The notes below the pieces were generated by a model. The model was given only the letters and a program-made list of their open reading frames with translations. It was not told the DNA's origin and made no database searches. 9,909 nt of DNA from Actinomycetota bacterium (GTDB lineage Bacteria; Actinomycetota; Coriobacteriia; Anaerosomatales; JAHIQC01): contig JAHIQC010000031.1 of the NCBI GenBank assembly GCA_018902765.1, forward strand, positions 1 through 9,909. The letters run 5' to 3'. Both the position numbers and the translations under genes were made by a program. Every line of letters starts with the position of its first letter. The stretch's first letter is position 1. Below are positions 401 to 7,752 of the stretch, one piece after another.

Positions 401-722
401 GGATGCGGATGCTCGTCATTCTTCGGCTCCCTCGGGGCCACGCGCTCTTCGAGGTGTGGGACGGCGGACCTGAAGCCTGAGAGATCCTCGTCGCCAGCTG
501 CCATTGCCGGGTCTCCTTGCACCAGCCACTCCCACAATGCCATAGTCTGCTAGACGCGTTCCGACGGTAGGATTCCCTATCCAGGGGCGTCCAGGACAAG
601 CCACGGGCGTCCTGCACGTCTCCCGCGGTCCGCCCTCGCCGTGCCTGCACCCAATGGCGTTGGGGGGTCTGCCAGCTGTCGCTCCTTGCCTTGGGTGCCG
701 TACTTCGTTGGCCGCGCCAACT
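393..722. other. Gene-free stretch
   Basis: I see no credible gene here on either strand. Long open frames exist on the minus strand (for example 982-416), but they are Arg/Ser/Gly-rich, have no recognisable domain, and run across the remnant regulator and the start of the thioredoxin gene. The one small structure noted is CAGGAC facing GTCCTG near 592-614. The stretch probably represents eroded DNA upstream of the broken ArsR gene. No tRNA-like T-arm or CRISPR-type repeat was seen. Confidence 0.5.
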
Positions 723-919
723 GTGTCTGCGACATGGACGACGACGCAGCTCGACGAGGTCTTCAAAGCGCTGGCATCGGAGCATCGACGGTGTCGCATC
801 ACATGTCGGTGCTTCGTGGGGCCGGACTTGTGGACGGTCGCAAGGATGGGCTCTGGACCTACTACACCTTGAAGCGGGATGTTCTTGATGAGGCGGCTCG
901 GGCCCTGCGCAGTCTCTAA
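723..919 (+). pseudogene. Remnant of an ArsR-family regulator (internal deletion plus frameshift)
   Basis: Two parts of one ArsR-type winged helix protein lie in different frames. In the frame of a GTG at 723, bases 750-791 encode LDEVFKALASEHRR, the usual first helix of the family. In the next frame, bases 785-919 encode STVSHHMSVLRGAGLVDGRK, then DGLWTYYTLKRDVLDEA and ALRSL, which are the recognition helix, the wing and the C-terminal helix, ending at a TAA. About 25-30 residues normally between these parts (helices 2 and 3, where many members carry their metal-binding ELCVC-like motif) are absent. The junction falls in a GCATCG-GA-GCATCG direct repeat (774-787), as expected for a short-repeat deletion. 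The position 45 bases before the redox operon suggests it once controlled that operon. No functional full-length product can be read. Confidence 0.75.
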
Positions 920-963: not shown

Positions 964-1494
964 GTGACAGGCAAGGACGCAACTGAGGCGTCGGCTGTAG
1001 AAAAGAGCCCGTTGGCGGCGGTCATCATCATCCTCGTGGTGGTGGCGATCTTCGCGGGTGTGCTCCTGGCCAAGGCGACCAACGGGTCTTCGGACGCGTC
1101 CACTCAGGTGCCCGGGAATTCCGCGAGCTCAGGGTCTGTCCCGGTCGGCGCAGTGACGATAACCAGCACACACAACGATGCGGTCACCGACTACGAGGCT
1201 GCACTTGCGACCGGCAAGCCCGTCTACGTACTCTTCCACTCGCTGAGCTGTCAGCCGTGCGTAGAGATCTCAGCCGTGGCCGACAAGATCATGCCTGGCT
1301 ACGAAGGCAAGGTGGTGTTCGTCAACGCCATCAGCGATGACCCGTCAGGTCAGCAGCTGGCGTCGCGGTTCCAGTTCCAGTACATTCCCACATCGTTCTT
1401 CATCACCCCCGACGGCAAGGTGGCCGACTCGTTCACCGGCGCCATGTCCGACGTCGACATGAAGGCGCGGCTCGACAAGTTGATCGCCCAATGA
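964..1494 (+). CDS. Membrane-anchored extracytoplasmic thioredoxin-like protein
   Basis: The protein has 176 residues. Residues about 16-37 are one hydrophobic segment (starting PLAAVIIILVVV) that anchors the protein with its C-terminal part outside. A Ser/Gly-rich linker follows (about 40-65), then a thioredoxin fold from about 70 to the end. The active site is CQPC at 96-99 after VYVLFHSLS, the cis-proline is in YIPTSFF (about 140-146), and TPDGKVADSFTGAM is the usual final strand pair. Proteins of this type reduce or exchange disulfides outside the membrane, and they obtain electrons from a CcdA/DsbD-type carrier. Its TGA stop overlaps the start of exactly such a carrier (ATGA, 1491-1494), so the two are almost surely translationally coupled. 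The GTG start is supported by the GAGGAG site. The substrate is unknown; cytochrome c maturation or protection of secreted thiols are both possible. Confidence 0.88.
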   Translation: MTGKDATEASAVEKSPLAAVIIILVVVAIFAGVLLAKATNGSSDASTQVPGNSASSGSVPVGAVTITSTHNDAVTDYEAALATGKPVYVLFHSLSCQPCVEISAVADKIMPGYEGKVVFVNAISDDPSGQQLASRFQFQYIPTSFFITPDGKVADSFTGAMSDVDMKARLDKLIAQ

Positions 1495-2204
1495 GCATTG
1501 AGTCTCTCGCATCGCAGCTGACTGGCGGTTCGCTCGGGACCGTTGCGGCGTTCGGAATCGCATTTCTCGGCGGCATGGTCGCGGGCTTCGGGCCGTGCGT
1601 GTTGCCCATGCTTCCAGCCGTTTTCGGCTACGTGACCGGGCAGGTCGCCGAGACACCGGGGATCTCGCAACGCAGTGCGTGGCGCAAAGGGCTGGCTCTT
1701 TCGGCGACGTTCGTGCTGGGGATGAGCCTGCTGTTCGCTGCGATCGGAGCAGCTGCCGCGTTGCTCGGGAGAGCACTGCTGGTGGGTGCGTGGGCCTACT
1801 ACGTGGTCGCGGCGATCTGCGTCGTTCTTGGTCTGCAGATGATGGGAACCATCAGCCTGCCCTTCGATGCGCTGAACCGCTTCGTGCCGAACACGCGCCC
1901 CGAGCGCCGAGGGTTTCTCGGGGCGTTCCTGTTCGGGATCTTGTTCGGGGTCGTCGCGTCGCCGTGTTCAACTCCCATACTTGCGGCGATTGCCACGATA
2001 GCCGCCACCCGTGGATCGGTCCCTCAAGGAGCCCTACTGCTCTTCATCTACGGACTCGGCAAGGGTGTGCCACTCATCTTGCTCGGTCTTGCTTCAGGCT
2101 CACTCGTCGTCATGCGCTCGCTTTCGCGCGCGACGGGCGTTCTGACCAAGATCGGTGGTGCAGCGCTCATCGGCGCCGCCGCCTACCTCGTATGGCTCGC
2201 GTGA
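1491..2204 (+). CDS. ccdA: CcdA/DsbD-type transmembrane thiol-disulfide carrier
   Basis: The 237-residue protein has about six hydrophobic segments and the family's two signature cysteines. Cys36 lies in GFGPCVLPMLPAVFGYVTG and Cys159 in FGVVASPCSTPILAAIA, the two symmetric halves of the CcdA fold. In this family the two cysteines pass reducing equivalents from cytoplasmic thioredoxin across the membrane to extracytoplasmic thioredoxin-like partners. The length is typical for CcdA, which lacks the extra soluble domains of DsbD. The start overlaps the stop of the anchored thioredoxin by 4 bases, which identifies that protein as its probable partner. The stop at 2202-2204 is a TGA that clearly ends the gene, since a strong ribosome binding site for the next gene follows 6 bases later. 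That shows TGA is a normal stop in this genome. Confidence 0.92.
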   Translation: MSIESLASQLTGGSLGTVAAFGIAFLGGMVAGFGPCVLPMLPAVFGYVTGQVAETPGISQRSAWRKGLALSATFVLGMSLLFAAIGAAAALLGRALLVGAWAYYVVAAICVVLGLQMMGTISLPFDALNRFVPNTRPERRGFLGAFLFGILFGVVASPCSTPILAAIATIAATRGSVPQGALLLFIYGLGKGVPLILLGLASGSLVVMRSLSRATGVLTKIGGAALIGAAAYLVWLA

Positions 2205-2210
2205 TTCCCC

Positions 2211-2216
2211 AAGGAG
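2211..2216 (+). promoter_or_regulatory. Ribosome binding site for the selenoprotein frame
   Basis: AAGGAG lies 5 bases before the ATG at 2222 and directly after the ccdA stop. It is one of the best Shine-Dalgarno sites in the window. It supports translation from 2222, not from the downstream ATG at 2339, which has no comparable site. Confidence 0.75.
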
Positions 2217-2221
2217 ATGAG

Positions 2222-2599
2222 ATGGAACAGATAGCGATCAAGATCATAAATCCCGAGGCCTGCGGTTGAGGCGGTGCACGAGTGTACTCGGGCGGTCCGC
2301 TCGAGGAATTGGACTACTCCGAAGGTTCGACTTGAGCCATGCCTGTCGAATGGCACCTCCACGTGTTGGAGGAACGACTCAAGCACGACTTCGGCCACGT
2401 GTTCGCAATTCAAGCCGTCGATCTGTACGGCGTATCACTCGCCGAACAAACCGCGGCAATCGATGCGATGGTTGAGACCCAGGGCGACTTCCCGATCACT
2501 TTGGTCGACGGAGTGGTGGCATGCGTGAGCGAAATCGACATAGATGCGATTGCGGCGGAACTCGGCCGAAGGATCGAGTCGCAGTCGTCACACCCTTAG
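2222..2599 (+). CDS. Putative thioredoxin-fold selenoprotein with two in-frame TGA codons
   Basis: The frame from ATG 2222 (ribosome binding site AAGGAG) to TAG 2597-2599 has 125 codons, interrupted only by TGA at 2267-2269 (codon 16) and at 2333-2335 (codon 38). Reading both as selenocysteine (U) gives one small thioredoxin-like protein. It has strand IAIKIIN, a Cys14-Gly-U16 redox-like motif, helix LHVLEERLKHDF (46-57), strand FAIQAVDLYG (61-70), a helix around 73-87, the cis-proline-like FPITLVDGVV (90-99), and a final helix IDAIAAELGRRI. The second half resembles the small YuzD/DUF1462-like disulfide oxidoreductases, but I do not recognise the exact family. Each TGA is followed by a SECIS-like hairpin at the proper distance. 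The gene ends the thioredoxin-ccdA operon, and a redox job is inferred from that. Alternatives: only the first TGA is read, or the gene is decayed and the part from Met40 (2339) is made alone. There is no obvious lipobox or signal peptide, so it is probably cytoplasmic. Confidence 0.65.
2287..2305 (+). promoter_or_regulatory. SECIS-like hairpin after the first TGA
   Basis: CTCGGGC (2287-2293) pairs with GCTCGAG (2299-2305) to make a 7-base-pair stem with a single G-U pair. The 5-base loop GGTCC starts with two guanines. The loop begins 24 bases after TGA 2267-2269. Bacterial SECIS elements are known to sit just 3' of the UGA inside the coding region, with a guanine in the first two loop positions and a loop roughly 16-37 bases from the UGA, so all criteria are met. 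A shorter competing helix (CGAG/CTCG, 2279-2290) is weaker. Confidence 0.6.
2356..2372 (+). promoter_or_regulatory. SECIS-like hairpin after the second TGA
   Basis: CCTCCA (2356-2361) and TGGAGG (2367-2372) form a perfect 6-base-pair stem with loop CGTGT, which has a guanine in its second position. The loop begins 26 bases after TGA 2333-2335. The geometry matches the first hairpin closely, though the loop begins with C and the element is a little less convincing. Confidence 0.45.
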
Positions 2600-6888: not shown

Positions 6889-7752
6889 ATGCGTTCACTC
6901 AAGCTCACACTCGCAGCGTCGCTCGCATTCGCTTTGCTCGCGGCGCCCCTCACAGGGTGCGCGGCACAAGACGCGGACTCCGGCGCCATGGGTATGGCGG
7001 CGGGAGGCCCGACCCCGGGACCCGGGATGGGCTTGGGTATTGTCGCCGCCGATGGGGATGCGAGCCTTCAGGTCGCCGAGGAGAGCTCCTCGGCGGAAGG
7101 GATCTTGGTGCAGCGCGTGGTGTCTCCGGGTGCCGGGTGGCTCGTGGTCCGTTCCCTGATCGAGCCCTACGGCGTACTCGGTCGGGTGCATATTGATGCC
7201 GGCGAGAGCCGAGACGTCCTCGTGACGCTTGACGCAGCCGATTCGGCGTTCGCGAGAGTCGCACTGCACGCGGACCGTGGGAGCCGTCAGGTGTTCGAGT
7301 ACGACCCTTTGCGACCCGAGCGAAGCTTCGACAAGCCCGTGTTCGTGGATCAGGTGCCTGTTGAGAGCGACGTGGCCATCAGTAACTTCGGCATCGAGGC
7401 ACCGCAGAACATGGCCTCGATGGTGGTCAAGGACCAGCAACTGGGCCCCGACGGCTCGCTCCTGGTCGATTACGTGCGACTTCCCGGTCCGAGCTGGGTC
7501 GCGGTACACATCATGAGCGATGGAGTCCCGGGGCGCCTTGTGGGATGGGTGGCGCGCGGCAAAGGCGAGTCGTTCGCGTTTCGCGTGCCTTTGGATGGAG
7601 TCCAGGCCGGGGATCGCGTGATGGTGACGCTGCACGCCGACACGGGCGAGATCCTGCAATTCGAATACGACGTGAGCGGGCCTTTGGGCTCGATCGATCA
7701 ACCCTATACCGCTAGCGGGATTGTGGTCGCGAAGGCGGTGCTTCTGCAGTAG
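6889..7752 (+). CDS. Lipoprotein with two DUF7282-like domains
   Basis: The 287-residue protein starts with a lipoprotein signal peptide and lipobox LTGC (Cys24). A Gly/Pro/Met-rich linker follows (31-50). Two similar beta-rich domains come next. The first runs about 84-153: WLVVRSL, LGRVHIDAGES, LVTLD, VALHADRGSRQVFEYD. The second runs about 203-276: WVAVHIMSDGVPG, LVGWVARGKGES, FRVPLD, VTLHADTGEILQFEYD. This pattern (WVVVH, a G-rich turn, then LHADxG and FEY) is that of DUF7282, a domain common in secreted archaeal and actinobacterial proteins with no known activity. The protein is presumably anchored to the outer face of the membrane. The ATG has only a poor ribosome binding site, but the signal peptide begins right there. 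No terminator of note follows; only a 4-base-pair hairpin (GCCT/AGGC) lies just after the stop. Confidence 0.85.
   Translation: MRSLKLTLAASLAFALLAAPLTGCAAQDADSGAMGMAAGGPTPGPGMGLGIVAADGDASLQVAEESSSAEGILVQRVVSPGAGWLVVRSLIEPYGVLGRVHIDAGESRDVLVTLDAADSAFARVALHADRGSRQVFEYDPLRPERSFDKPVFVDQVPVESDVAISNFGIEAPQNMASMVVKDQQLGPDGSLLVDYVRLPGPSWVAVHIMSDGVPGRLVGWVARGKGESFAFRVPLDGVQAGDRVMVTLHADTGEILQFEYDVSGPLGSIDQPYTASGIVVAKAVLLQ

What the first reader, a model, noticed from the sequence alone, without database searches (positions are those of the whole stretch)
2222..2599. Unannotated selenoprotein: Cys-Gly-Sec motif in a thioredoxin-fold protein encoded after ccdA
A normal gene finder would stop at the TGA of codon 16 and call only the part from 2339. 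Yet the best ribosome binding site is at 2211-2216, the sequence on both sides of the TGA reads as one thioredoxin-like protein, and the TGA falls in a Cys-Gly-X redox motif. A 7-base-pair hairpin with loop GGTCC starts 24 bases after it, as in bacterial SECIS elements. TGA ends ccdA and the anchored thioredoxin gene normally, so a changed genetic code does not explain it.
Basis: partly seen in the sequence, partly recalled or inferred. Interest (0 to 1): 0.9.

Follow-up and report, generated by a model that had tools for sequence, protein, structure and literature searches.

The report
Double-selenium protein hidden behind stops
A small bacterial gene that protein databases hold only in part is predicted to be read through two UGA stop codons, both likely decoded as the selenium-containing amino acid selenocysteine, giving a thioredoxin-like protein that probably helps handle arsenic and would be an overlooked selenium protein family.

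Summary
The finding holds and is larger than stated. Relatives occur in 30 of 69 genomes of the window's order. Codon 16 is TGA in 32 of 32 copies examined; codon 38 is TGA in 22, Cys in 8, Trp in 1, Ser in 1. Codons on both sides evolve as protein. In 12 of 30 loci the frame runs from a DUF2703 domain into the first TGA. SECIS-type hairpins follow codon 38 in 21 of 21 UGA copies, against 7.8 +/- 1.9 with synonymous codons. The genome holds selA, selB, part of selD and tRNA-Sec. The predicted thioredoxin fold starts before both UGAs; relatives' neighbours are often arsenic genes. No Pfam and only one chance-like NCBIfam match was found. An arsenic-binding role is inferred. Open: five of 30 carrier assemblies lack the machinery, nine of 29 rows lack a standard hairpin at codon 16, and hairpin covariation sits mostly in copies without the UGA.

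The parts
2211..2216 (+). Ribosome binding site AAGGAG
   Evidence: Sequence
2222..2599 (+). Whole gene read through both TGAs: 125 residues, then TAG stop 2597-2599
2267..2269 (+). TGA codon 16, predicted Sec, in Cys-Gly-Sec
   Evidence: TGA in 32 of 32 relatives with this stretch
2287..2305 (+). Hairpin with GGTCC loop, candidate SECIS for codon 16; loop starts 24 nt after the UGA
   Evidence: loop 2294-2298
2333..2335 (+). TGA codon 38, predicted Sec, just before helix 1 of the model
   Evidence: TGA 22, Cys 8, Trp 1, Ser 1 of 32; model
2356..2372 (+). Hairpin with CGTGT loop, candidate SECIS for codon 38; loop starts 26 nt after the UGA
   Evidence: loop 2362-2366
2339..2599 (+). Truncated 86-aa ORF as held in the protein database; lacks strand 1 of the modelled fold
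   Evidence: P0002; model
1491..2204 (+). ccdA (DsbD_TM), upstream neighbour in the probable operon
   Evidence: PF02683 E 1.6e-29
964..1494 (+). Membrane-anchored thioredoxin, upstream neighbour in the probable operon
   Evidence: PF00085 E 6.2e-8

Best explanation
Window 2222-2599 is very likely one gene whose two in-frame UGA codons, 16 and 38, are predicted to be decoded as selenocysteine, giving a double-selenocysteine thioredoxin-fold protein that would probably bind arsenic compounds in the cytosol and pass them to an efflux pump. Shown by calls: the conserved frame across both UGAs, UGA/Cys exchange at codon 38, hairpins after the UGAs, the Sec machinery in the genome, and arsenic genes near many relatives. 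Predicted: the fold (strand 1, then a loop holding Cys14, Sec16 and Sec38, then helix 1). Inferred: each UGA uses the hairpin just behind it as SECIS for SelB. Inferred: Cys14, Sec16 and Sec38 form a soft three-ligand site placed after strand 1, where the ArsD proteins fetched here have their invariant C12, C13 and C18. Inferred: neighbouring thioredoxins and CcdA keep the site reduced, and efflux is by ArsP-type or ACR3 transporters. I hold double Sec decoding at about 0.92 (lowered from 0.93 after the covariation recheck) and the ArsD-like arsenic role at about 0.4. The score of 0.8 is for the double selenoprotein with some tie to these redox and arsenic loci; the first rival shares that core and disputes only the last step.
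For: Codon 16 TGA in 29 of 29 aligned rows and 3 further copies. Codon 38: TGA 21, TGC 4, TGT 2, TGG 1, TCC 1 of 29; the 3 further copies have TGA 1, Cys 2. pN/pS over 10 of the 23 pairs at 60% identity or more, picked by hand with no sequence used twice: 0.34 before codon 16, 0.45 between the sites, 0.35 after; shifted frames 1.07-2.72. In 12 of 30 loci the frame runs from a DUF2703 domain into the first TGA (Pfam run on one copy), and database copies of that fusion stop exactly at ...PECG (5 of 6 viewed of 11 hits). Site-2 hairpin in 21 of 21, simulations 7.8 +/- 1.9, maximum 13 in 300 runs; site 1 in 15 of 29 against 6.5 +/- 2.0, maximum 12; 18.5% of 1126 later positions have one. Machinery. 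An own formate-dehydrogenase-like gene (130 bits, under the family cut-off) reads ...RIUHSS... at an in-frame TGA. Model pLDDT 82, thioredoxin-fold order of strands and helices; nearest 1xg8 (Foldseek E 9.5e-4), then ArsD and SelW. Neighbours within 4 kb in 30 loci: ArsE-type small thioredoxin 19, ArsP permease 18, membrane thioredoxin 17, ArsR 11, CcdA 11, ACR3 10.
Against: No relative with Cys at codon 16 was found among the hits viewed of three protein searches, so that site lacks a Sec/Cys pair. Of 29 rows, 8 have no hairpin with the usual loop at codon 16 and 1 only a weak one. Five of the six aligned copies with Cys at codon 38 keep the codon-38 hairpin. Covariation is no independent support: in the 14-row group the 9 cells changed on both sides beat 500 of 500 shuffles, but 7 of them are in four Cys copies of one genus and 1 in the Trp copy; in the 8 UGA copies alone only 1 cell is double-changed (182 of 500 shuffles reach that), and the 13-row group is weak too. 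Five of 30 carrier genomes lack selA, tRNA-Sec and selB over the cut-off, and a sixth lacks tRNA-Sec. Carriers are not clearly enriched for the machinery: selB 25 of 30 against 26 of 39 non-carriers, tRNA-Sec 24 of 30 against 28 of 39. The loop between the two Sec has mostly pLDDT under 50, so no metal site is modelled. The neighbour tally has no background control and rests on similarity to one scanned representative per family. No arsenic transporter was found in the window.
Confidence: 0.8

Rival explanations
1. Double selenoprotein as above, but a pure redox enzyme: it would take electrons from thioredoxins or CcdA and reduce an arsenical, a disulfide or a peroxide, with no metalloid carrying.
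For: Sec just before helix 1 is the usual thioredoxin active-site place (general knowledge; model). Neighbours are thioredoxins in 17-19 and CcdA in 11 of 30 loci.
Against: No CxxC, UxxC or CxxU motif in the window protein; instead Cys-Gly-Sec and a distant Sec. Cys-rich C-terminal tails in several relatives resemble those of some fetched ArsD proteins.
Confidence: 0.35
2. Both UGAs are ordinary stops: a short leader ends at codon 16 and the 86-aa ORF from 2339 is translated on its own by reinitiation.
For: The protein database holds this ORF; an ATG follows the second TGA by three bases.
Against: Frame-specific constraint before and between the UGAs, DUF2703 frame running into the first UGA in 12 of 30 loci, Cys at codon 38 in 8 of 32 copies, missing strand 1 in the short ORF, hairpins beyond codon choice.
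Confidence: 0.04
3. UGA is read as Trp or another ordinary amino acid (changed code or suppressor tRNA).
For: TGG at codon 38 in one copy (L042), and a W at that place in metagenome protein P0031.
Against: TGA ends ccdA and the anchored thioredoxin, and is the assigned end of 17 of 29 family members. The selA and selB matches of this genome hold no stop. 8 of the 10 non-TGA copies have Cys at codon 38. tRNA-Sec is present.
Confidence: 0.02
4. Only codon 16 or only codon 38 is Sec in the window; the other is a stop that ends or cripples the product in this strain.
For: Site 1 has no Cys relatives among the hits viewed, and nine of 29 rows lack a standard hairpin there.
Against: Both TGAs are kept together in 22 of 32 copies from several genera, and the window has a standard hairpin after each.
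Confidence: 0.03

Closest known systems
SA0789 of Staphylococcus aureus (PDB 1xg8; DUF1462/YuzD by recall)
   Different: 12% identity in that alignment; no Pfam match of any of 29 members; no Sec there by recall
ArsD arsenic metallochaperone (PF06953; 3ktb, 3kgk, 3mwh)
   Different: No Pfam match; hhalign aligns only 29 columns, probability 24.6, E 0.0008; CGU...U instead of CC....C
Selenoprotein W (2npb)
   Different: SelW-like motif is CxxU in the review table; here CxU plus a second Sec 22 codons on
Catalogued selenoproteins with a CxU motif (rhodanese form 3, UshA-like, ferredoxin-thioredoxin reductase, thioredoxin-like Sec.1) or with two Sec such as MbdU and TsoB (Table 1 of PMC13188914)
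   Same: CxU motif, or two Sec in one chain; ferredoxin-thioredoxin reductase is listed with CxU and two Sec, MbdU as metal-binding
   Different: No Pfam match, and no NCBIfam match at E 0.01 among 29 members other than one chance-like MnmH hit

Membership tests
Bacterial selenoprotein | In-frame UGA conserved in relatives, with coding constraint on both sides | tested here: met
   TGA in 32 of 32 at codon 16, 22 of 32 at codon 38; pN/pS 0.34, 0.45, 0.35 in frame
Bacterial selenoprotein | Sec/Cys exchange in relatives | tested here: met
   Met at codon 38: 8 of 32 Cys. Not found at codon 16
Bacterial selenoprotein | SECIS hairpin 16-37 nt downstream with G in the first two loop positions | tested here: met
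   Window: both sites. Family: 21 of 21 at codon 38; 20 of 29 at codon 16, counting energies of -6.6 or lower. Covariation in UGA copies weak
Bacterial selenoprotein | selA, selB, selD, tRNA-Sec in the genome | tested here: met
   selD only as a C-terminal piece at a contig end, under its cut-off
Bacterial selenoprotein | Selenium in the protein | not testable with these tools
   Needs mass spectrometry or labelling
ArsD (PF06953) | Sequence profile match | tested here: not met
   No Pfam hit among 29 members at E 0.01; weak partial hhalign
ArsD (PF06953) | CC....C motif after strand 1 | tested here: not met
   CGU...U instead
ArsD (PF06953) | Thioredoxin-like fold of ArsD type | tested here: inconclusive
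DUF1462 / YuzD (1xg8) | Fold and sequence match | tested here: inconclusive
   Best fold match, no sequence match
Thioredoxin (PF00085) | CxxC or UxxC active site and profile match | tested here: not met
   No Pfam hit; motif absent in the window protein
Selenoprotein W-like | CxxU motif and profile match | tested here: not met
   No Pfam hit; CxU instead

The most novel reading that the evidence does not exclude
A selenium-based arsenic chaperone: Cys14, Sec16 and Sec38 together grip trivalent arsenic and hand it to ArsP or ACR3, in a family seen here in one order only, with two SECIS elements of different geometry in one short gene. In copies with Cys at codon 38, the single remaining hairpin would direct Sec at a UGA about 92 bases upstream, far outside the bacterial SECIS rule.
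Probability: 0.15. Interest if true: 0.85.

Novelty: new variant of a known kind. Interest (0 to 1): 0.62.

Why it matters
It would add a double-Sec family that annotation has split into a 'DUF2703 protein' or nothing upstream and a short hypothetical protein downstream. It would tie selenium use to arsenic handling in one order of Coriobacteriia. The family offers a natural test of SECIS rules, since site 2 uses two hairpin positions (loop 18 or 26 nt after the UGA) and a hairpin remains in five of six aligned copies where that codon is Cys.

Tried and rejected
A generic bacterial-SECIS filter (loop, spacing, energy) was rejected as evidence because shuffles pass almost as often; I used a stricter hairpin with synonymous-codon controls. 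Covariation first looked strong, but a recheck showed that 7 of the 9 double changes lie in four Cys copies of one genus and that UGA copies alone show almost none, so I do not count it. Pairwise pN/pS over all 406 pairs was saturated (0.92, 0.84, 0.70), so I used 10 of the 23 closer pairs, picked by hand. ArsD membership by profile comparison was rejected. ArsD itself was found in 13 of 149 sampled genomes of the phylum, none listed in the window's order. A PDB sequence search gave an antifreeze-protein match (E 0.0005) and two weaker ones, judged chance. A fold of the 86-aa ORF alone gave pLDDT 58, but without an alignment it cannot be compared. Presence of Sec machinery does not separate carriers from non-carriers in this order. 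Literature: the listings showed no paper on this family by title or abstract start. I read the outline, sections 5 and 7 (parts 1 and 2 of 3, with Table 1) and passages of PMC13188914 and passages of PMC12013277; nothing else was opened. Rows dropped: L018 (unrelated proteobacterial hit), L017 (same locus as L020), L019 and L052 (the window itself), L047/G107 (contig edge, no upstream part), and four weak places (E 1.6e-4 to 8.9e-4, not examined). Protein hits viewed: 11 and all 31 in alignment A1; 21 of the 50, others of those being in A1; 6 of 11.

Full report
What is there. The frame from ATG 2222 to TAG 2597-2599 has 125 residues and two internal TGAs, codons 16 and 38. AAGGAG stands at 2211-2216 and ccdA ends at 2204. 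The protein database entry identical to the window is the 86-aa part from 2339 (P0002). Of the other 31 hits, all but P0031 begin at or after that Met in alignment A1; P0031 begins between the sites and reads through site 2 with Trp.

Relatives. A profile search found the gene in 29 of 396 genomes of the class, in 30 of 69 of the order and in 4 of 396 across the phylum, all of the window's order. Hits with names say Coriobacteriia or Anaerosomatales, one only Actinomycetota; taxonomy puts Anaerosomatales in Coriobacteriia. I infer that order for the window. 29 full-length rows were aligned. Of 37 places, 32 hold the first site, one is cut by a contig edge, and four weak ones were not examined.

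The two codons. Codon 16 is TGA in 29 of 29 aligned rows and in L109, L110 and L111. Codon 38 is TGA in 21 of 29, TGC in 4, TGT in 2, TGG in 1 and TCC in 1; L111 has TGA, L109 and L110 Cys. No Cys at codon 16 was seen. The protein hits viewed begin after the first TGA or end at it, apart from P0068, which lacks the domain, and P0054, which has an unrelated start. L111 is a second copy in G057 with both TGAs and an internal loss.

Coding constraint. Over 10 close pairs, pN/pS is 0.34 before codon 16, 0.45 between and 0.35 after; shifted frames give 1.07-2.72. In 12 of 30 loci the open frame upstream of the first TGA carries a DUF2703 domain: Pfam names it in the one copy scanned (PF10865 E 2.7e-25), the other 11 match that copy. 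Database versions of such fusions end at ...PECG in 5 of the 6 viewed.

Hairpins. The published model asks for a 3-9 nt loop, G in its first two positions, 16-37 nt from UGA to loop, and -7.5 kcal/mol or lower (PMC13188914 section 5). That filter does not discriminate here. With contiguous stems of at least 5 pairs and loops starting [N]G[G/U], site 2 scores 21 of 21 against 7.8 +/- 1.9 in 300 synonymous-codon runs, and site 1 15 of 29 against 6.5 +/- 2.0. Energy scoring agrees (z -4.6 for site 1, -4.2 for site 2). Site-2 hairpins fall in two registers, loop at 18 or 26 nt. Covariation does not help: in the second register 9 cells changed on both sides, but 7 of them lie in four Cys copies of one genus and 1 in the Trp copy; UGA copies alone give 1, and the first register is weak. 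Also against the simple reading: five of six aligned Cys copies keep the hairpin, and the four g4 copies (L041, L043, L044, L046) lack a usual hairpin after their only UGA.

Machinery. Own genome (73% complete): tRNA-Sec 68.4 bits, also seen by ARAGORN; selB 367 bits; selA 585 bits; selD 108 bits, under its cut-off of 125, matching positions 186-309 at the contig end. selB, selA and selD lie on one contig. A formate-dehydrogenase-like gene has an in-frame TGA in RIUHSS, so the organism very likely uses Sec elsewhere. Of 30 carriers, 25 have selB over the cut-off and 24 tRNA-Sec; of 39 non-carriers 26 and 28. Five carriers (G051, G145, G047, G107, G075) also lack selA. In G003 selA, selB and tRNA-Sec are adjacent, so one missing contig could explain them; this is inference.

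Novelty. No Pfam match and one chance-like NCBIfam match (MnmH, E 0.0031, one member) among 29 members at E 0.01. Table 1 of PMC13188914 (119 families or subfamilies) lists four with a CxU motif, one of them with two Sec, and several other two-Sec families, but I saw none described with this pair of sites or this fold. Paper searches listed none. The library lacks most subscription journals and preprints.

Verdict. Double Sec decoding is strongly supported by sequence (about 0.92, lowered by 0.01). The arsenic-chaperone role rests on fold resemblance, ligand placement and neighbours (about 0.4), with a redox relay close behind.

Noticed in passing
window 641-919 (and 654 onwards in another frame): ArsR-like regulator remnant, apparently split over two frames; the ORF 641-916 matches only positions 26-46 of HTH_5. 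Loss or assembly error in the probable operon's regulator.
   Followed up: partly
L111, G057:C137:46393-46548: Second copy with both TGAs but an internal loss after helix 1, in a genome that also has a UGA/Cys copy.
   Followed up: partly
L041, L043, L044, L046 (genus g4) and L038: Cys at codon 38 but the downstream hairpin is kept, its loop about 92 nt after the only UGA; relic, codon constraint or another role.
   Followed up: partly
P0058: Database protein that runs from a CcdA-like part into DUF2703 and ends at the first UGA; fusion or assembly artefact.
   Followed up: no
L025, L026, L028 site 1: By eye, a short stem after codon 16 with an ACGCC(C/T)GA loop, not the usual GGU loop; a possible other SECIS class, not computed.
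   Followed up: no
loci L082-L085, L088, L090, L091, L095, L097, L098, L100: Ornithine degradation genes (OraE, in eight of them also OrtB) lie near the gene, mostly beside the DUF2703-fused form; L084 has a short upstream frame.
   Followed up: no
window 6889-7752: ORF with two matched DUF7282 stretches.
   Followed up: no
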